From NCBI GenBank assembly GCA_002749535.1, contig MZZL01000137.1, positions 146,345 to 210,344 on the forward strand: a stretch of 64,000 nucleotides of DNA, written 5' to 3'. Each line of letters starts with the position of its first letter. Position 1 is the first letter of the stretch. The notes under the pieces were generated by a model that was given only the letters and a program-made list of their open reading frames with translations, made no database searches and was not told the DNA's origin. Source of the DNA: Apophysomyces variabilis. Lineage: Eukaryota > Mucoromycota > Mucoromycetes > Mucorales > Mucoraceae. Shown here piece after piece: positions 10,144 through 44,144 of the stretch. Both the position numbers and the translations under genes were made by a program.

Positions 10144-10961
10144 TCACGGGCCATGCAGAAGTCGAACCGGGGTTGGTTGACTAGCAAAATGTTGTGCAAG
10201 CTTGTAATTGCTTGAGTATTGAGAGCTGAACACCGGGATTGGACTTCCATCACTCGAGACAATCATGGATACGCCTTTGAGTGCAATGTTCTTCAACGCA
10301 TTGCCATCCCGGTTCATAGTGCTACAGCCGTTGACGACGGTAACACAGTTGGAGTTCACGCAGCAGACAGCGCCATTACACTTCCTGACCTTGCCGTCCT
10401 TTCCTCGGTATTTTTGTAACTGTAGAGGCTTGAGACACCAGTGGCAGGTCTTACTAGTGTTGTATTCGTCCACAATAACTACCAAGCCTTTTCGTCGTTG
10501 TACTCCACGTAACCGTTTGAGTCTCCTGCGAGCATGTCCTCGAATGCGAGAATTGGTGGGCTGCCAATGGCAGTAAAAATGAACAGTTTTTGAAAAATCA
10601 TGTCTGGGGGGAAGTGCATACGTTCGATGTCAGCATACTTGTGGTATGCTTTCTGGGTAAACACCTCTCCAGTACGCTTTTCACGTTCAATTCTCCTGTT
10701 GTCAGCTTCGGTCCCCTCTTTCTCAGCATTTTTGGCTCGTTCTCTGTGCAGACGATGTCTGTTCGAGCGCGAGTGATGGTTGACAGCTGATGCTCGGAGA
10801 CTCCAGGTATTGTAAATATCGTGCCGTAGCTCTGTCGTTGTGTTACTGGTAAAGTCCCGTATCCGTTGTATCATCCATGCAGATGTCCTACTTGTTGACA
10901 CACCGCTGAATGACGCAAGCATGTACCAATTTGATGGCATGCTGGGATTTTTTTTTTCCAA
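10144..10961 (-). pseudogene. Fanzor/TnpB-like RNA-guided nuclease relic
   Basis: Minus-strand remnant in two frames. The 3' part (10485-10144) holds the TnpB/Fanzor C-terminal zinc ribbon and the third RuvC motif: VVIVDEYNTSKTC, CHWC, then CCVNSNC about 30 residues later, then MNRDGNALKNIAL with the final catalytic Asp. The 5' part (10961-10479) encodes a basic helical region typical of the middle of Fanzor proteins. Between them, near 10540-10560, the expected ...RGHARRRLKRL...KGLVVIVDEY block lies in a shifted frame, so one frameshift breaks the gene. The first RuvC Asp region (DPG) is not intact near 10870. Family knowledge: Fanzors are transposon-borne eukaryotic relatives of TnpB. No flanking inverted repeat was found for this copy. 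Confidence 0.75.
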
Positions 10962-28322: not shown

Positions 28323-29165
28323 CTAGTCTGTATCGTCTTTGACATCATGTTCAGGCTGTGAAGGGTTCCACATTTTGATTGCCAACAGTACTATGTTAAA
28401 CAAGAACAGCCATAAAGTAAAAATAAGTTGCAGCTTGCCGCCGCGGTCGATTTCGGGCAATGGGTTTTTTTCAATGAGGACGCAGAGAACAATTGATATC
28501 ACGAGATGGAGCAGGCGGGTGAGACAAGCGAGTCCATGCAAAATCTGTCCGACGACTTGGAATGGGCGACAGCTATTGAACACTCGAAATTGTTCGTAGA
28601 ATCGATCGGCTAGTTGGCGTAGGTTAGAAGCTTTGGTGACGGTTACATCTCCATTTCGAAATCTCTCGAGAACCGCTTTCAAGGGACCATAAACTCGGTT
28701 CGTATTGACTGTTGGTTCACGTATGTATCGGACGGCCCAAAAATGCTTACCAACAGTCAACAAAACTTCGAACGTTGTAAGCCCAATAAGACATACGATC
28801 AGCTTAAACACGATATCCTGATTCGTTATGAATGCCATTGATCCGATACAGGAAGGAATAAAACCGAGGGCATTCATGATCACTTCTGTATCAGTTATGT
28901 GAGCCAGACGGTCCTCACCATCCTTTATAAGCCAACTAGTTTTAATGTCCCTGATGCGTCTTTGTTCATAGCTTCTCACGTCGTCCTGGTATCGTCTTAT
29001 TTGTTCCAATTCAACCATGGTTTCCGCTGCCGATACGGGTGTTGATGTGGTCGCATCACCGTGTGTCCCGTCGGCATCTCCAGGTACGCATAGAGTTTGA
29101 CTGATTCCCGTTATGTTGAAGCCCGGATGATCTGCTGTTGAGCCTTCCAATATGCCTTCGACCAT
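28323..29165 (-). CDS. Four-helix membrane protein of unknown function
   Basis: An uninterrupted minus-strand frame of 280 residues. The first 110 residues are polar, with a short charged helix (EQIRRYQDDVRSYEQRRIRD). Hydrophobic segments follow at roughly 121-136, 140-162, 213-236 and 248-266, separated by a cytosolic-looking loop rich in Arg. The C-terminal tail is acidic. I do not recognise the family, and there is no signal peptide. Single-exon structure is unusual beside its intron-rich neighbours, but base composition and codon use look native and the frame is fully intact. Confidence 0.7.
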   Translation of the reverse strand: MVEGILEGSTADHPGFNITGISQTLCVPGDADGTHGDATTSTPVSAAETMVELEQIRRYQDDVRSYEQRRIRDIKTSWLIKDGEDRLAHITDTEVIMNALGFIPSCIGSMAFITNQDIVFKLIVCLIGLTTFEVLLTVGKHFWAVRYIREPTVNTNRVYGPLKAVLERFRNGDVTVTKASNLRQLADRFYEQFRVFNSCRPFQVVGQILHGLACLTRLLHLVISIVLCVLIEKNPLPEIDRGGKLQLIFTLWLFLFNIVLLAIKMWNPSQPEHDVKDDTD

Positions 29166-35956: not shown

Positions 35957-36085
35957 TAGGGTTCACCACGAGTCGAGTTGACTCGAGTCAAGCATTAACT
36001 CGAGTTGACTTGACTTGAATAAACTTTTAACTCGAGTCGACTTGCTTTGACTTGACTCAAAGTTACAAGTCAACTCGAGTCAAGT
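35957..36085. repeat. hAT subterminal repeat cluster
   Basis: Repeated CTCGAGT, GTTGACT and GACTTGA units in both orientations, such as GAGTCGAGTTGACTCGAGTC, give a palindrome-rich block of about 130 bp. hAT transposases bind short subterminal repeats of this kind. Confidence 0.7.
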
Positions 36086-36598
36086 GGAACATTATTTAAG
36101 CGAAAAGAGATCTTAAGAGCATATATAACAATGCAGCATTGGGAAGTTACATTAACCGATTTTGACCTGTAGAAATGCGCACGAAGTTTTAACTACGTTT
36201 CTAATTTTGGTTCAGTTGAATGGAAAGGTTTAAGCGCGGTGTTGTGTAAGTTTTAGACGTTTTTATTGGGATTGCCGTAACGGAGTGATTGCATATAAGG
36301 TCTGTCTTAAAAGTAATGCCAGCCATAGACAAGAGTAAAAAAACTTCCGTTATTGCTTCTAATATATAGAGATGAGGCATGCTTTGTCAAGTTTTTAAGG
36401 AAGGTAAGAGTGAAGCAAGAATAGGGAAAAGAAGAAAAAGCACAAACGTTCAGCGAAGAAAAGACGTCATCGCTCTGACACATAAAAAAGACGTGTTGTG
36501 AAAAAAAAGTTCCGTTCTCTTTTATGGCACGGAATGTTTCAAGGCGGGCGAAAGATGGGTTTATTATATATATATATATATGAGTTACTAAGTATTCT

Positions 36599-37759
36599 CT
36601 AGGAAAGCGATCGCCGCCACGAATCGCTCAATACCAGCTCCTTAACAGTGTCAGGGTTTAGACGATTACGCTCAAAGGGAACGAAAAACTTCGCCTGCGA
36701 AAAACAACGCTCCGACGGTACTGAAGACGCCGGAATAGCCAAATACCGTCTTGCCATCTGCGCTAAAGACGCCCACTCAATGGTGCGATGCTTCCAATAC
36801 TCGAGAACATCCATGTCATCAGTGCTTGTACTTTCTGCAAGGTACACCTCAAGCTCATCTTTCGATCGCTTTGTGTGGAATAGTTTGAATGTGTCAGGGA
36901 CCAGCTGTTGCGAATTGCTACTTGGCTCCTGAGACTTGAAGTGATTGTCCCAGACCTGGCGCACTTGACGCATAGACGATGCAATGTATTCTTCCTCCCA
37001 GCCGTTCTCCTTCCAGTATTCGTCCTTTGTTCTAGGATCCATCACCGTACTGATAGCATACAGTGCTGCCTCAGTCTTGGAGTAATACTTGCACATCTTC
37101 TCAAAGGCAAGTTTGGTGCCATTACGTAACATTGAGCTCTACATAACAATGAAGTACACGAATTAACGATAAAACTCCTTGTACATTCAATAGAAATTCC
37201 TTACCACAGTTAGGCTTTTTTCTGCATAATCATCCACATGATCGAACAGCTTGTTATATGCGAGGATGGTGTAATTGATAGATGGGTAATGGGAAGCGGA
37301 CAAAAGCTTGGTGAAATATTCAAACGGTTTTAGGAATTCCCGGAGCTCTTGCATATGTTCCCAATTACTAGGAGAAAGCGCAAACTGTTGAAGCTCGTTG
37401 GGAAGTAAGCTGCACATAGAGTCGTAAGCATGTCGAAGTTCTAATGCTGTCTCAATCATCTTCGGTGTTGAGTTCCATCGAATTCTAACGTCAACGGCCA
37501 GTTCCATTTTGCTGTTTCCATTTGCATTGTCAGCATTATTCATGCGAACACATCTATGGAACAGTTCACGCCGTTGAGAAGATGAGCGCATTTTCACAAT
37601 TCCTTTTCTGAGACGATTCAGAATTTCACCTACACATAATTGAAAAGGACGGTAAGGAAACAGTTTGGCTTTGGTGGGAATAAACTTACCGATGGGATTA
37701 TCTCCTTCATGAACAGGCCTGTCTGTGTTAAATGCAGCATCACTTCCGAAATCACCCGT
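36599..37759 (-). pseudogene. hAT-family transposase, C-terminal part
   Basis: Three exonic blocks on the minus strand (up to 37759-37690, then 37629-37205 and 37138-36599) join in phase. The last one holds the hAT dimerisation domain: an acidic spacer (LEYWKHRTIEWASLAQMARR), then YLAIPASSVPSERCFSQA, FERNRLNPDTVKELVLS and a stop. The middle block has IRWNSTPKMIETALEL and LLPNELQQF and corresponds to the RNase-H-like fold's C-terminal section. The BED zinc finger, the first catalytic Asp region and the start codon are absent: upstream of 37759 the frame meets a stop and no splice acceptor. The remaining part is intact, so loss by truncation is more likely than slow decay. Confidence 0.85.
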
Positions 37760-38979
37760 TCATTGACGATGAGGCAGGACATTCGTCCGATTCATCCTCT
37801 TGTGAGTCATACACGTTTCCTCGCTCTCGCTCCAGATCCCCCACCCAAAGGGGTAGACAATTGAACTCCAAAACAAGATTCTTAACCTACAGCAGTTGTC
37901 CAAATCTCACAAAAGAACTTATACTAAACAAACTCATCAGTCTCGGCGTAGACAAATATGTCATTGGTAGAGAATTGCATCAAAATGGCATCCAACATTT
38001 CCATGTCTTCTGTTCTTGGCTTACACCGTTGCGCACGCGCAACATGAAACTATTTGATATAATGGGTTATCATCCTCAAATCCAAGGTGCAAGAAATCCA
38101 ACCGCTTGCTACAAATACTGCACAAAGGAAGATCCAAACCCATTAACAAACATTAAACCAATAGAAAATGCCAAAACCCGCCATCCAACCTGGCTGGATA
38201 TTGTAACCGAGAGTAAAACAAGGGAAGAATTCATGGATGCTGTACTGAAGGCCGATGCGTACACATACGTAATTCAACACGAGCAACTCGATTATTATTG
38301 CGATAAAAAATACAAACCAGTAATACCAGATTACGAACCAAATCCAAACCATCATTCTTTTGTCGTTCCCCCGGAGGTAGATGACTGGGTACATCAAAAT
38401 ATCGAACAAAAACCAGAACGCCCAAAATCTCTTATACTCGTCGGCCCAACACGTACCGGTAAAACATGCTGGGCCCGCTCGCTTGGAAAACACACATACC
38501 ACTGCTCAATTTTAAACACAAACTAGAACTTCAACGATCCAGATATCGAATACGCTGTATTGGATGATATTTCCATTCAACATTTTCCTCATTACAAAAA
38601 CTGGCTCGGCTGCCAACAAATGTTTGTTCACCGCGGCCGATACAGTAAAGATAAAGATATCCATTGGGGTAAGCCGGTAATTTGGTTATGCAATCCCGAT
38701 CAAGATCCTCGTCGCCCACCCAATGTCGATCAAAACTGGCTTCAAGGTAATGCAGTCATAGTTGATATACACGGTCCAATGTGGGATCCATCCTCGCCCG
38801 TAACACGCCCTCGTCCTGATCCACTGAACCTTGATTTTAACGACTTTTCGGATATGTCTCCTTCGCCCGCTTCTTACGTACCAGTACCCGATGCATTGCC
38901 GTCGCCCCCATTTATTACTTCTCACCAACCAGGTTTTATAACAATATACGATTCAGATTATGATTATAACTTTGAATAA
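37732..38979 (+). pseudogene. rep: Endogenous geminivirus-like (CRESS) Rep, interrupted
   Basis: A plus-strand frame from the ATG at 37732 runs to a TAG at 38524-38526, and the same frame stays open from 38527 to a stop at 38979. The first part has the HUH endonuclease set: motif I FLTYS (about residues 50-54), motif II HFH (89-91), motif III YCTK (129-132) and a GRS-like HPQIQGA between II and III. Walker A GPTRTGKT lies at 238-245. Beyond the stop lie Walker B (VLDDIS), the motif C region (IWLCN) and a Pro/Asp-rich tail. This order is that of Reps of Geminiviridae/Genomoviridae. An N-terminal Ser/Arg extension of about 45 residues precedes motif I. Removing the TAG by splicing would also remove Walker A, so a nonsense break is more likely. 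It is an old viral gene copy, not a virus. Confidence 0.85.
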
Positions 38980-39277
38980 ATATCTTCGTCCTTTTTTCAG
39001 TAAATAATTGTCGTAGTGTGCCGCAGTCGCAGCCTACCGGCTGTCCCCTCCGGCGGCTCGTACAGAGTCTCATACACCACATTGCATTCACCCGTTTTTT
39101 CCTTTTTTGCTCTTTTTCTCCTCACACATCACTTTTCACATACGTGTTTCTAAGTGATATATGCTTCTTTTGATGGCCTCTATCTCGTGTACGAGTTTCG
39201 TCCATTTTTATTTTTTGGCGAAATTCGGTCATTTTTGACCATTTTGCCAGGTATACCCCTTACGTTTTTTTGCGTTT

Positions 39278-39332
39278 CGGGGGGTGCGGATTACGCGGTC
39301 GAAATCACCTGCCCGCCGAACTGCACCCCCCG
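39278..39332. repeat. 10-bp perfect inverted repeat (hairpin)
   Basis: CGGGGGGTGC at 39278-39287 pairs perfectly with its inverse at 39323-39332 around a 35-nt loop. It lies 300 bp downstream of the Rep remnant. The loop has no TAATATTAC-type nonanucleotide, so it is not a standard CRESS origin hairpin. Confidence 0.75.
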
Positions 39333-40119
39333 GTAATAAAACTCAGATACACCTCGAAGACGCCCCCTTGCCATGGCAACACGCCATCCCCTCGTCTCCG
39401 CTGCAATTTAATTTATCTTATGACACGTGCGGTGCTTTGTCTTGTGACAGAAGGGTACAAAATAAAGAGAATACAAATATACGTAGGAAGGGAAGGGGCG
39501 CACAATAAATATAACACAGAGAAGAAAAGGATACAATGTAATCGCAATTGATAAAAGGGAAAGGGTACAATAAGATGGTCTCAACCGTAAGAAGAGTGTT
39601 AAAGAACTTTAAAGGAGAATAATAAAATAAAGGTGATCGAAAGAAGGAAATACAATAATAGAAGGGTACCAAAAAAAAAGAGTCTCGCGAAATACACAAT
39701 AAACTTCTGTCAATTATATGCTTCAATGATCCTCAGCGATCCAATGACAACAATATAACTTGACCAAGACAAATTTCAGAGTGTAAACAGAGCTTGAGGC
39801 ACAAAAAGGGTTTTTGGATGTCGCTCCCCACACACCTTTCCATTCCCTTTGTCCTCGTCTTTTTATTCATGGAAAACTTCTACTAAACTTCGTACTAGTG
39901 AGACAAGATCTTTAGGAAAGGAAACTAATAAAAGAATGGACGAAACGGAAGACAGCGATAACGAACAAAAGAAAATAATTATGAATTATACTATCTTGAC
40001 TTAAAAGACAACAGCGTATACGTCAGGATAGAACAATAAAATGCAGAGATGATAGCGTCGTGTAACACCGGTTTTACCCAGGTCAAGGTCAAGTGGTAGG
40101 TTCATCATTCACGAAAGTT

Positions 40120-40281
40120 GTGCACCATTGGAGTCTGTTGTGTGTCTATCTTTCGGTTCGTAAAGGTAGTGTACCTCAAAAGACGCGGTGTACCAACAAC
40201 TGCCAGACGTTGTGTCCCAGCCAAATACGTTGTGCACGAACTCCACCCCAAGTGTCGTGTACCTCCAAGAACGTGGTGCAC
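40120..40281. repeat. GTGYAC iteron-like array 1
   Basis: Seven GTG-initial repeats, mostly GTGCAC or GTGTAC, start at 40120, 40169, 40188, 40212, 40232, 40257 and 40276. Apart from the first gap the spacing is 19-25 bp, about two helical turns. Confidence 0.75.
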
Positions 40282-41060
40282 ATAATCGAAGAGACAGGAA
40301 GAAGACCAAGACTTTCCGTAGAATCGAGTATACGCAAGCGCTTCATTTCCGTATTTTTTTACTTCTTTGGGACGGCCAGAAATAATCACCACGCACCGTG
40401 TCATCAGTGACGCGTGCGGTGTTTGTATGGGGGTTGGAAGTACACGTTAGGGATAATAAAAGACGTTAGCAGAACCAACGCTAGAAAAGGTATACAGACA
40501 AGAAAAAGATTTCGATAAAATAGATATACTAAGCGGTGGCAGAAGGGTACAATGAAATAGGATCTCAAAAGGCAATACAAAATATGACACAATAAGCCTA
40601 TTGCTAGTTACTTGTTTCAATGATCGTCCGATGATCCAATGACAACAATAACTCTAACAACAGCTAAAGCGAAACAACAATAAAGAGGTTTACAAAGGGA
40701 AGATACAAAAAAAGACAACCAACTGAATAAGTGCAATCTAAGCGTAGAATGCCACTTGTTCGATTGAGCAGAAAAGGTGTGGTAAAATTCGCTGTGGTTT
40801 TTCCTATCGGATCCCACTATATTTATTTCCATTGCCTTTAAGAAAACTAAGTTTGTCCGAAGGCCAAAGACATATTAAGACTACAAATAGAAAAATGACG
40901 ATAACAAAAGATACAAAAGGTGAAATTGTGTCGATAGGTAAGGTCCATGGATGTACTTGAGAGACAGATGTCGTGTGTAATTTATCACGACGTGTTACGC
41001 CCGGTTTTATACGCTGCATTGTTAACTTCAGGATTGTTCGGTCGTTTTCGTTTTCCGCTC

Positions 41061-41121
41061 GCGCACCCCCTCTCAGTGCACCCCACTTAGGTGCACTACA
41101 ACCAGTGTAATTGTTGTGTAC
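41061..41121. repeat. GTGYAC iteron-like array 2
   Basis: Related copies at 41061 (GCGCAC), 41076, 41091, 41105 and 41116, more closely spaced and more diverged than in array 1. Same relative place in the next tandem unit. Confidence 0.55.
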
Positions 41122-41892
41122 GTAAATCTGTTCATCGTGAATACTCTGGACATTTCCTGTGATTTCGATGCCAATTCCATGTTGATGTTGGTCCTGTGTA
41201 CGGCCGGAAAAAAGTACAACACATCGTGTCATCAGTGACACGTGCGGTGCTTATGTACTGTGACAAGTAAGTACAAAAGAAGGATGGGGATAGAAATAAA
41301 TAAAATAGTACAAGACACAAAAGTACAACAACAACAAGTGTGAATAATGAATTCACAAAATATCAACTGTTCAAACAAATACAATTGAGGGAGGGTCGGG
41401 TTAAGGAAAAGATATAACGAAGGGTAGTAGAAGAGTGTAAAAACAAAATAAAATATATGAAGGAAGATAACAAAGGGAGTTCACCAAATAAACAATGTCA
41501 CTTCAAACGATCTTAGCAGTAAAGATGAGTTCCTTAGATCCTTTCTCAAAAGCAATCTCAAAGACACTCCAAATTCACTGTACCCAGAAAAGATGTTTGC
41601 AAGTACAATACGGTTCCGGTTCTTTTTGGTTCAAAAGGTTCTTTTTCCAGGAAATTCCTCTTCTTCTTTTGCGAAAGAGGTCCTTTCCGTGTCTTTATTT
41701 CCTCTGAAACTATTCGACCAAAGAGGGGAATTCACTAGAACTAACTTAAAATTGAAACCATACAAAACGGAGGTAAACGCTAAGGACATGGGTTAGGAAA
41801 AGCATGCGATCACTGGGAAAGAATGGGAGGAAGGATTCAGCCGTGTTTTTCAAGTTACACCAAATGACCATTTACGTCCGAGGCGGATGTGC

Positions 41893-42022
41893 GTGTACAA
41901 ATAATTGATTGTGGTGTACCAACCAGGTCCATAGGAGTTGTGCACGTACAAGGCAGGTGTGCACCAAACCAAGAGCAAAGGTCGCGCACCTAGGCCAACG
42001 TGTAGTGTACCTAGCCGTGTAC
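41893..42022. repeat. GTGYAC iteron-like array 3
   Basis: Copies start at 41893, 41914, 41940, 41959, about 41984 (GCGCAC), 42005 and 42017, mainly 19-26 bp apart, as in array 1. Confidence 0.7.
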
Positions 42023-43016
42023 TTCTTGAAGATCAAGACAAACTTTCCACCATTCTTACTCCCAAAGGCTCCATCTTTTCATTCTTTCCATGTTGCATTT
42101 ACTCGGGTGGTGAGGCCACAAAAATTATCAGACAAGGTGTCAATCATGTCACGTGCGGTGCTTGGACAATCACTTGTCAAGGCTGAAGGGGACGAAGAAA
42201 AGAAATGTAAGTATGGGTAAAGTAAAATACAAATAGACGAACAGAAATACAGTCTGAAATATCAGTGTCAATAGTAGACAATGGGGTCAATAAAAGAGGA
42301 TAATCGAATGAAATAAAAGATAGCAAGGGAAGTAGGAAAGATAATAACCACAAAAAAAAATTGATCAAGAATAAAGAGGAAAAGTCGAAATACAATCAAA
42401 ATCAAGAAGCAATACACAATGACACGTAAGAAAATATAGGCTGCCCTTCAACACTATCAAGTTCTTCACGCTGTCCAAGGCTAAGTCCCTTTTTATCTGA
42501 TGATTCCCTCCCTGAAGGTCATTCGCCTTCGGGTCTTTTATTCTGTTCACTTCTGGAGAAGTAACTAAACGATTGGACTGGTAAGTCAGATCGCCGACTT
42601 TACCGAACGCAGAAAAAAAAGAAGCTAACATAAAAACTAAAATAAAACAAAACTAAAAGGAAGGCTGAGAACAATAGCCATGCAAGAAAAAAAGAAAAAG
42701 GTCAGAAGCAATCTCTGCAGCTATAATGAACTGCACGCAGAGAGCGGAGGCAAGATAATGCAGCTGTCAAAGGGCTGGGCAGCTCGTACCACCAAGATGC
42801 CTGCAATGATCGGGGACGTTGTGCGCAAGGTCTGCGAACCGATACCTCTGTTTCGTTGGCTACCCACCTTCCGTATACGGTAATCGTCCAAGTCCCAAAA
42901 AGGAAGGTGGCCTTCAGAAGTGTTCTCAAGGCGAAAGAAATGCTTTTCAAAACGGCCGAAAAACTGTCTTGTGGTGAGGCCGGGAAATCCTCAACGCCAC
43001 GCGTCAATCAGCAAAT

Positions 43017-43088
43017 GCCTTGCTAGCTCAATCGGCAGAGCGTGAGACTCTTAATCTCAAGGTTGGGGGTTCGACCCCCCCGTAGGGC
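43017..43088 (+). tRNA. tRNA-Lys(CUU)
   Basis: A 72-nt cloverleaf without intron. The acceptor stem is GCCTTGC with GTAGGGC (with wobble pairs), the D-arm has AGCTCAATCGGCAGAGC, the anticodon stem TGAGA/TCTCA encloses loop CTCTTAA with anticodon CTT at 43050-43052, and the T-arm has GGTTCGA in a G/C stem. A-box and B-box promoter elements are internal, as for any Pol III tRNA gene. Confidence 0.93.
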
Positions 43089-44144
43089 TTACTTTTTGCC
43101 TCCTTTCTGGAGGGGCGGAGTTTTTTACGTGCGCGACATTTTTTCTGCCAACGGTGGGACCCACTGGGGATTAAGGGTAACAAAAGAAACGGAAAGTGAA
43201 CGGACCATAATCTTTACCGGTAAACCTAATCTATAGATTGTCATATTTCTAAAAGTAACTGTAACAATGCGGACACGGTCCAGCATTTGAAAGAGTATAA
43301 CGAACAGACAAGCGATTGTGCAATAACGTTGCTGAGTATCGCCTTCCCGGAGATGTTGCTGTTTTCTGTAAAATGATGGGGTTAACAAGTTGATGTTTTT
43401 TGAGGAAGAGCCAGTGGTGCAACCGTCTGTGCCACACAATTTTGCAGGCATGGCATTCGCGTTTCTTGGTGTGCACCAAAGCAAGGAGGCATGCAGGATG
43501 CAAGATGTTTGCGTCGGAAAGAACAAGTATATTTACTGCTTTTAAATCTCATTAGAATTTGTTTTTTACTACCGTAGGGAAAGGTTCTCTCTGGTAAATT
43601 TTGTTATTCAGAATTTGCGCTGAGTTCTCGGTGGTTAACAGGTCTATAGTACCTCTTATTTTTGGGATCGGATCCGTGGTTACCCAGAGCTTTACTTTAA
43701 CATATCATTAGGTTAAGATAGTCAGATTGACGGCGTCCTTTGTTTTGTTGCTTAGCCTATTCTATCGCTAAGTTAGTGTAGTCAAGTTTCATTGAGCGTA
43801 TTAAAAGGGAGGCATGTTCAGGTCATTTGAAGGGAATGATTGTTCCGTCATTTCATTCTGAAGACATGCACTTTATATTAGAGTAAGACGCATTACGACG
43901 ATTTGCTCTCACCATATACGAAGTTGCTCTTATTTATAAGGCTTCTTACGCCCCTTGCTCACAATTGATTTCTTCTTATTTCTTGATAAACCTACAGATA
44001 ATGATGAACAGATTAAAAAAATGTCAAAGTATCATTTATTTTCTATGAGCCTGTACTACGCAATGACATTTTCAGAGCATAAGAAAAGTTTGAAAAATAT
44101 TACAGAGATTGTACGAAATGGAAGAGGGAAGGGGAAGGATATAA
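43089..44144. other. intergenic region
   Basis: AT-rich DNA between tRNA-Lys and the hydrolase-like gene. Overlapping minus-strand frames at 43526-43125 (with LWCTPRNANAMPAKLCG or RECHACKIVWHRRLHH) have no family support. Confidence 0.4.

What the first reader, a model, noticed from the sequence alone, without database searches (positions are those of the whole stretch)
37732..38979. Endogenous geminivirus-like Rep gene in a fungal genome, broken by one TAG
Motifs I, II and III of an HUH endonuclease, a GRS-like block and an SF3 helicase Walker A are in one frame; Walker B, motif C and a tail follow after a single TAG with no other break. The near-intact state suggests either recent insertion or selection on the remaining domains. 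A long Ser/Arg N-terminal extension and an acidic Pro-rich C-terminal tail are not typical of plant geminivirus Reps.
Basis: partly seen in the sequence, partly recalled or inferred. Interest (0 to 1): 0.9.

Follow-up and report, generated by a model that had tools for sequence, protein, structure and literature searches.

The report
Broken viral Rep gene in fungus
A fungal chromosome carries one leftover copy of a replication gene from a small circular single-stranded DNA virus, missing its start, broken by a stop codon and wedged between transposon debris: a fossil of past infection, of a kind already known in other fungi.

Summary
In detail: 37732-38526 and 38527-38979 are one frame cut by a single TAG, with a geminivirus-type HUH domain, central domain and Walker A before the stop and Walker B, motif C and a tail after it. 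Both pieces are significant on their own. (1) The gene is not near-intact. The ATG at 37732 lies in a neighbouring hAT transposon: of the ten closest hAT copies nine stop matching at 37745 and one at 37739. The Rep-bearing DNA begins at 37746; its next in-frame Met is codon 105. (2) The insert (37746-39420) is single-copy, between a truncated hAT and four solo-LTR-like repeats beside a tRNA-Lys gene, inside a 708-kb contig. (3) In outgroup-rooted trees both pieces fall outside the sampled geminiviruses; support is moderate, branches are long. Best explanation: a recently captured, 5'-truncated, dead Rep fragment of a gemini/genomovirus-related CRESS virus in a fungus that is probably a Mucoromycotina (inferred). 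Endogenous Reps of this kind have been reported in ascomycetes and a basidiomycete since 2011, so this is a new member of a known kind, hinting that such viruses reach Mucoromycotina.

The parts
35957..37745 (-). Truncated hAT transposon copy: left terminal inverted repeat and 3' part of the transposase gene; the other 2.5 kb of the element were not found in the window
   Evidence: Pfam Dimer_Tnp_hAT; 142 matches to its transposase in the genome, itself included, 150 of 191 candidates scored; 9 of the 10 closest copies stop aligning at 37745 and one at 37739; rest of the element sought in the window
37732..37745 (+). hAT-derived bases that supply the ATG of the Rep reading frame; an in-frame TAA lies directly before at 37729
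37746..39420 (+). Single-copy foreign insert (1675 bp) holding the Rep pseudogene and 441 bp of downstream DNA without a known gene
   Evidence: Only itself in the 38.7-Mb assembly as DNA; each protein piece finds only itself
37746..38523 (+). Rep piece 1: Ser/Arg-rich leader, HUH endonuclease domain, central domain, Walker A; 5'-truncated
   Evidence: predicted structure with pLDDT 88-98 (10-residue means) over residues 41-140; best PDB fold match a geminivirus Rep domain
37861..38130 (+). HUH domain (residues 44-133): motif I FLTY 37879-37890, motif II HFH 37996-38004, GRS-like block about 38035-38079, motif III YCTK 38116-38127
   Evidence: Pfam Gemini_AL1 2.9e-13; H89, H91, Y129, K132 invariant in the 15-row alignment; motif names recalled
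38188..38472 (+). Geminivirus Rep central domain match (residues 153-247), Walker A GPTRTGKT at 38443-38466
   Evidence: Pfam Gemini_AL1_M 2e-13
38524..38526 (+). TAG stop between Walker A and Walker B
38527..38979 (+). Rep piece 2: Walker B-type VLDD (38557-38568), motif C IWLCN (38680-38694), Pro-rich acidic tail, TAA end
   Evidence: 79.7 bits against the relatives' profile, best of 200 shuffles 4.7; motif names recalled
39278..39332 (.). 10-bp perfect inverted repeat CGGGGGGTGC / GCACCCCCCG with a 35-nt loop; weak candidate for a remnant of a viral intergenic region
   Evidence: fold z -1.95, 10 of 200 shuffles fold as well; no origin nonanucleotide within one mismatch in the insert, five with two
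39421..43006 (+). Array of four solo-LTR-like units (A 39421-40403, B 40408-41231, C 41236-42142, D 42147-43006), each beginning TG and ending CA, separated by TCAG, TCAG and ATCA; bounds the insert on the right
   Evidence: 57 matches in the genome, own locus included, 40 of 99 candidates scored; unit ends and tRNA genes in the same loci
43017..43089 (+). tRNA-Lys(CTT), host gene

Best explanation
This is an endogenous viral element: part of the genome of a gemini/genomovirus-related circular ssDNA (CRESS) virus that entered the nucleus of an ancestor of this fungus and was captured into a transposon-rich spot. In life the protein would have nicked the viral origin with its HUH tyrosine (Y129), rejoined DNA ends and unwound DNA with its SF3 helicase for rolling-circle replication (inferred from homology). 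Here the gene is dead. The piece lost its own 5' end and start codon where it meets a truncated hAT element, ends against the terminus of a solo-LTR-like unit, and has a TAG between Walker A and Walker B, so helicase motifs B and C cannot be made in the same chain. Most conserved residues are kept, so loss of function was recent on the neutral scale. Shown: gene identity, single copy, both junctions in the assembly, loss of the start, the stop, and a place outside the sampled geminiviruses in rooted trees (moderate support). Inferred: the capture mechanism (end-joining or rearrangement), the host group, and the absence of function.
For: Domains and motifs in both pieces; predicted HUH fold; chromosomal context and single copy; junctions with hAT and LTR-like unit A; start codon in hAT DNA; conserved columns kept 25 of 28 in piece 1 and 14 of 16 in piece 2, against 23-28 of 28 and 11-16 of 16 or 17 in the relatives; third-position G 0.12 in both pieces against 0.157-0.257 in 11 host open frames of the window (no significance test); nine relatives scoring above the plasmid Reps; precedent in fungi (PMC3198968, sections 6 and 8 read; PMC6186406, passages).
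Against: No capsid match and no circo/nanovirus-type Rep match, but no control genome rang in either, so both are uninformative. No convincing viral origin in the insert. No reads, transcripts or sister strains were available, so the junctions and the stop are not independently confirmed. Tree positions rest on long branches and mostly unnamed sequences; without the outgroup piece 1 fell on the geminivirus side; no sequence labelled Genomoviridae was in the trees. Grouping of piece 2 with geminiviruses is not rejected (p-AU 0.149).
Confidence: 0.87

Rival explanations
1. Domesticated gene: the fungus expresses the 264-codon first piece, with its ATG borrowed from hAT, as a helicase-less HUH protein, for example one that interferes with related viruses.
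For: Piece 1 is open from an ATG to the stop and keeps 25 of 28 conserved columns, including HFH, YCTK and Walker A; the HUH domain is predicted with high confidence.
Against: The decay is what recent neutral insertion predicts (one stop expected at about 0.020 substitutions per site). Single copy, no expression data. Piece 2 keeps its conserved columns about as well (14 of 16) though it lies behind the stop, which selection on piece 1 alone does not explain.
Confidence: 0.06
2. Rep-bearing transposon: the Rep is cargo or the transposase of a mobile element, like the Tuber melanosporum repeat with a Rep-like ORF and transposase ORFs, or belongs to the adjacent repeat array.
For: The Rep adjoins a hAT transposase and a repeat array; [quoted passage not shown]
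Against: Rep and insert are single-copy. The 9 hAT copies printed run on as hAT at the junction. The repeat units occur in many places although the Rep occurs once, and look like solo LTRs near tRNA genes. The insert ends do not show the TG..CA ends of the units.
Confidence: 0.04
3. The TAG is a sequencing error or a strain polymorphism, and the gene is otherwise whole.
For: A single in-frame stop and no apparent frameshift in 409 codons, between Walker A and B where the aligned relatives vary.
Against: It does not rescue the gene: the 5' end and start codon are missing in any case. No read data here.
Confidence: 0.07
4. Assembly chimera or contaminating viral contig.
For: Both ends lie against repeats, where misjoins happen; a published screen of fungal isolates, Rhizopus and Syncephalastrum among those sequenced, lists its circular ssDNA viruses as contaminants (PMC9603141, passages).
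Against: The insert is internal to a 707,785-bp contig, breaks sharply at one hAT position, lacks its 5' end, carries a stop, and has no second copy.
Confidence: 0.03

Closest known systems
Endogenous geminivirus-like Reps of fungi (Liu et al. 2011, PMC3198968, sections 6 and 8 read)
   Same: Geminivirus-domain Rep genes or remnants in fungal chromosomes, no fungal capsid listed; interrupted frames in Tuber
   Different: The paper's table lists seven ascomycetes and one basidiomycete; here the 5' end is replaced by hAT DNA and the host is probably a Mucoromycotina
Geminivirus-like transposon of Tuber melanosporum (same paper, section 8)
   Same: Rep-like ORF near transposase sequence in a fungus
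   Different: There 42 Rep genes or remnants and terminal repeats of the element; here one copy and no shared ends, the neighbours are separate elements
Geminiviridae Rep (Spinach severe curly top virus P0001, Telfairia golden mosaic virus P0002, Opuntia virus 1 P0006/P0008)
   Same: HUH, central domain and helicase motifs in the same order; 29-33% identity over piece 1
   Different: Ser/Arg leader and Pro-rich acidic tail; outside the clade of these viruses in rooted trees of both pieces
Eucalyptus urophylla associated virus REP (P0022) and 17 unnamed metagenome Reps of its group
   Same: Piece 2 is 32-45% identical to these 18 (P0010 best, 38 of 83 columns) and lies on their side of the trees
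   Different: HUH domain only 24-35% identical; the 10 of them in alignment A1 have 72-84 residues between the columns of W219 and R230 where the window has 10; no paper found for the named virus
Genomoviridae (mycoviruses such as SsHADV-1)
   Same: Fungus-infecting relatives of geminiviruses; fungal endogenous Reps are reported near this clade (PMC6186406 passage)
   Different: Not compared directly: no sequence labelled Genomoviridae came back from the searches
Phytoplasma plasmid Reps (pPAPh2 and others)
   Same: Similar to piece 1 at 25-31% identity in the three compared
   Different: Best 72.8 bits, against 90.5-123 for nine relatives but above the other 19; separate clade in both trees

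Membership tests
CRESS-virus Rep of the geminivirus/genomovirus type | HUH endonuclease domain with motifs I-III and a GRS block | tested here: met
   Pfam Gemini_AL1 50.2 bits; HFH and YxxK in invariant columns; Foldseek best match TYLCV Rep domain 2.2e-7
CRESS-virus Rep of the geminivirus/genomovirus type | Central domain followed by SF3 helicase with Walker A, B and motif C in one chain | tested here: not met
   The parts are present in order but a TAG separates Walker A from Walker B; a Rep pseudogene, not a working Rep
Endogenous viral element | Viral gene integrated in a host chromosome, with host DNA on both sides | tested here: met
   Internal to a 707,785-bp contig, hAT on the left, LTR-like units and tRNA-Lys on the right; reads not available
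Geminiviridae | Rep falls within the family | tested here: not met
   Outside the geminivirus clade in rooted trees of both pieces; in the unrooted N tree beside it, not within it; p-AU 0.031 for piece 1 and 0.149 for piece 2 held with geminiviruses plus P0028. Long branches, four geminivirus entries only, so moderately firm
Geminiviridae | Coat protein, twinned particle, TAATATTAC origin in a hairpin | tested here: inconclusive
   No Gemini_coat match in the genome but no control rang either; no nonanucleotide within one mismatch in the insert; particle not testable; a fragment need not keep them
Genomoviridae | Rep groups with genomovirus Reps | not testable with these tools
   No labelled genomovirus Rep came back (IMG/VR scans 31, 44-46)
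Rep-bearing transposon (Tuber type) | Several copies with common ends | tested here: not met
   Insert and both pieces are single-copy
Bacterial or phytoplasma plasmid Rep | Closest relatives are plasmid Reps | tested here: not met
   Best of three plasmid Reps 72.8 bits against 90.5-123 for 9 of 28 relatives; the other 19 relatives score 42.0-66.6, below it

The most novel reading that the evidence does not exclude
The fragment samples an undescribed CRESS-virus lineage, outside Geminiviridae, that infects Mucoromycotina fungi, and a second, more decayed Rep-like fragment in the same genome (L045) shows that more than one such lineage reached this fungus.
Probability: 0.4. Interest if true: 0.55.

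Novelty: new member of a known kind. Interest (0 to 1): 0.36.

Why it matters
Few ssDNA viruses of fungi are known: one paper counts three Genomoviridae mycoviruses at its date (PMC9603141, passage), and those I recall are from ascomycetes. The same paper reports no DNA virus in 61 cultures of pathogenic fungi, with Rhizopus and Syncephalastrum among the isolates sequenced, and lists circular ssDNA viruses it amplified as contaminants (passages only). A Rep fossil in the chromosome of a probable Mucoromycotina is evidence of past contact that contamination does not easily explain, and it gives a sequence with which to look for living relatives. It also warns that a start codon beside an endogenous Rep may be borrowed from a neighbouring transposon.

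Tried and rejected
Chimeric Rep (N half gemini-like, C half of another lineage): suggested by the first trees, not significant (p-AU 0.092, 0.149 and 0.22; clades named after seeing the trees), and gone when phytoplasma Reps rooted the trees. Intron over the TAG: considered by eye only; an intron ending at that TAG would have to begin in or before the WARSLG block, which is invariant in the 14 relatives, so rejected. Viral origin in the insert: none within one mismatch and only a weak hairpin. Rep as the mobile enzyme of the repeat array: rejected, since the units are solo-LTR-like and 15 of 20 loci, the window's own included, hold a tRNA gene. Host name by protein search: query 28326-29165 gave no hit among 462 candidates. 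Relatives in IMG/VR: none usable; six loci at 25-29% identity to the later part of the query, not used. Papers on endogenous ssDNA viruses in Mucoromycota: none seen in the listings (listings and abstract starts only, held library only).

Full report
WHAT IS THERE. In the + strand, frame 37732..38526 (264 codons, TAG) is followed directly by 38527..38979 (150 codons, TAA) in the same frame. Piece 1 matches Pfam Gemini_AL1 at residues 44-133 (50.2 bits) and Gemini_AL1_M at 153-247 (50.8 bits), both over the cut-off of 24, and geminivirus Rep domains in the PDB by sequence (1l2m 1.4e-8, 7vg8 2.7e-8). A structure prediction of piece 1 alone (15-row alignment; mean pLDDT 74.0, pTM 0.46; 10-residue means 88-98 over residues 41-140) finds TYLCV Rep (2.2e-7), 1l2m and the wheat dwarf virus Rep domain as top PDB folds. 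Residues 1-39 and 254-264 are under 50 and the Walker A part is poorly modelled. Piece 2 has no Pfam or PDB hit but scores 79.7 bits against a profile of the post-Walker-A parts of 27 of 28 relatives; the best of 200 shuffles scores 4.7. P0003 was left out of that profile because too little of it follows Walker A.

HOST AND CONTEXT. The window is bases 146345-210344 of contig C29 (707,785 bp) of a 38.7-Mb, 126-contig assembly. Of 10 window frames scanned, 8 have Pfam matches, among them BAR, HSA, QLQ, DEAH-helicase, methyltransferase and RNase III. The genome has 44 chitin-synthase (PF03142) match rows, 8 of them over 690 bits, and 32 CotH match rows. The chitin-synthase family also rang in 4 of 14 control genomes and CotH in 3 of 14, all prokaryotes, so these are indications only. 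A paper reports CotH proteins as dominant in Mucoromycotina within the fungal kingdom and 17 cotH-like genes in Mucor lusitanicus (PMC9973265, passages). I infer a Mucoromycotina host; the species is not known, and one protein search for it found nothing.

LEFT JUNCTION. 35957-37745 (- strand) is a hAT transposon fragment (Dimer_Tnp_hAT; 142 transposase matches in the genome, own included). Of the 10 closest copies (L024-L033), 9 stop aligning to the window at exactly 37745 and one (L030) at 37739; more distant copies (L034-L042) gave no DNA alignment there. In the 9 printed, the copies continue as hAT while the window changes to other sequence. The closest copy, L024, is 99.2% identical over 962 bp. 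The other 2.5 kb of the element was not found elsewhere in the window (the strong hit is the left terminal repeat itself). So the ATG at 37732 and the next bases to 37745 are hAT DNA, an in-frame TAA lies at 37729, and the next in-frame Met is codon 105, beyond motifs I and II. The Rep has lost its own start.

RIGHT JUNCTION. 39421-43006 holds four repeat units of 983, 824, 907 and 860 bp that begin TGACACG, TGACGCG, TGACACG and TGTCACG and end GTCA, separated by TCAG, TCAG and ATCA. DNA 38980-42980 gives 57 matches in the genome, own locus included (40 of 99 candidates scored). Of the 20 loci scanned, L003 (own) included, 15 hold a tRNA gene (two of them of undetermined type); several single units show 4-bp flanking repeats (L011, L017, L019, L020, L021), others do not (L013, L022). 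I read them as solo LTRs of a tRNA-targeting retrotransposon; no internal part was sought. Unit A in the window has CTTA on its left and TCAG on its right, so no matching flank. The insert therefore abuts an LTR-like end, which suggests a rearrangement or end-joining rather than a clean insertion (inference).

COPY NUMBER. Piece 1, piece 2, PF08283 and the whole insert as DNA each find only this place. PF00799 finds one more, weak place (24.0 bits, cut-off 24): in L045 an AT-rich stretch has a motif-I-like FFLTYS piece in one frame, without any Pfam hit of its own, and an HFH/YMMK piece in another frame (Gemini_AL1 24.3 bits, cut-off 24; REP_ORF2-G2P 22.6 bits, below its cut-off 27.8). It looks like a second, older CRESS Rep fragment.

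RELATIVES AND TREES. Search with piece 1 gave 15 proteins among 156 candidates at 1e-5; with the 12-row alignment A2, 28 among 7,680. Of the 28, 7 bear specific names: four geminivirus entries, Persimmon circular DNA virus, Eucalyptus urophylla associated virus and a Ziziphus jujuba genome protein. No record labelled Genomoviridae appeared. Trees without outgroup (29 rows N, 28 rows C) placed the two pieces differently: piece 1 as first branch of a 9-row set with geminiviruses and P0026-P0029 (95/92), piece 2 inside the Eucalyptus-type group beside P0010 (85/81). Tests did not settle it: piece 1 held with the Eucalyptus-type group p-AU 0.092, piece 1 with geminiviruses plus P0028 0.031, piece 2 outside the Eucalyptus-type group 0.22, piece 2 with geminiviruses plus P0028 0.149 (clades named after seeing the trees). 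With three phytoplasma Reps as outgroup (32 and 31 rows), both pieces fall on the non-geminivirus side: piece 1 next to P0003, P0025 and the Eucalyptus-type group (82/85), piece 2 in a 22-row clade with P0024-P0027 and that group (93/82). Branches are long and support is moderate. By BLASTP piece 1 is nearest to the plant-genome protein P0028 (123 bits); 9 of 28 relatives score 90.5-123, the best of three phytoplasma Reps 72.8, and the other 19 relatives, the Eucalyptus type among them, 42.0-66.6. A plasmid-wide search gave 27 records, the ten listed all phytoplasma.

STATE OF DECAY. Columns at least 90% conserved in the relatives are kept at 25 of 28 in piece 1 and 14 of 16 in piece 2; in each, one of the lost columns is a gap. 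The relatives themselves keep 23-28 of 28 and 11-16 of 16 or 17. With 409 insert codons, one stop is expected at about 0.020 neutral substitutions per site; one stop or fewer has probability 0.044 at 0.10. If indels come at a tenth of the substitution rate (an assumption), one stop or fewer with no indel has probability 0.06 at 0.02 and 0.0006 at 0.05. Within the same genome, hAT copies L024 and L025 (96% protein identity) carry no stop and L026-L032 (79-94%) carry 1 to 5 in about 180 codons; some of these may be inherited or lie in introns, so this is a rough yardstick. Third-position G is 0.117 and 0.12 in the Rep pieces against 0.157-0.257 in 11 host open frames (no test). These results fit recent death without requiring selection, and do not exclude selection until recently.

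VERDICT. An endogenous, 5'-truncated, stop-broken Rep fragment of a gemini/genomovirus-related CRESS virus. Liu et al. 2011 (PMC3198968; passages, section 8, section 6) list such Reps in seven ascomycetes and one basidiomycete and describe a Tuber transposon with a Rep; PMC6186406 (passages) says fungal endogenous Reps cluster near Genomoviridae and Geminiviridae. The present case is a new member of that kind. Of interest are the probable host group, the place outside the sampled geminiviruses, and the borrowed start codon. I saw no paper on this in Mucoromycota in the listings, which is weak evidence of absence. I recall, but did not find in the library, a report of an endogenous CRESS virus in a chytrid, so early-diverging fungi are not wholly new ground.

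Noticed in passing
window 39421-43006; other copies L004-L022: Four different solo-LTR-like units (A-D) joined head to tail with 4-bp spacers just upstream of tRNA-Lys; the same units occur elsewhere in other orders and alone, and 15 of 20 loci hold a tRNA gene. It looks like a tRNA-gene-targeting LTR retrotransposon family with tandem insertions.
   Followed up: partly
L045:1459-1886 (minus strand): A second, AT-rich, frame-broken Rep-like fragment (FFLTYS in one frame, HFH..YMMK in another; Gemini_AL1 24.3 bits against a cut-off of 24), perhaps an older CRESS-virus insertion.
   Followed up: partly
window 10144-10626 (-): TnpB/Fanzor-like fragment: Cas12f1-like TNB domain at 22.2 bits (cut-off 26.3), E 1.6e-4, in a fungal genome.
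   Followed up: no
window 38143-38505 (-) and 38686-38952 (-): Antisense open frames of 120 and 88 codons opposite the Rep; perhaps by-products of its G-poor coding strand.
   Followed up: no
P0028 (Ziziphus jujuba LOC125421085): The best BLASTP match of piece 1 among the relatives is a protein predicted from a plant genome contig of 29.9 Mb, itself apparently an endogenous Rep.
   Followed up: no
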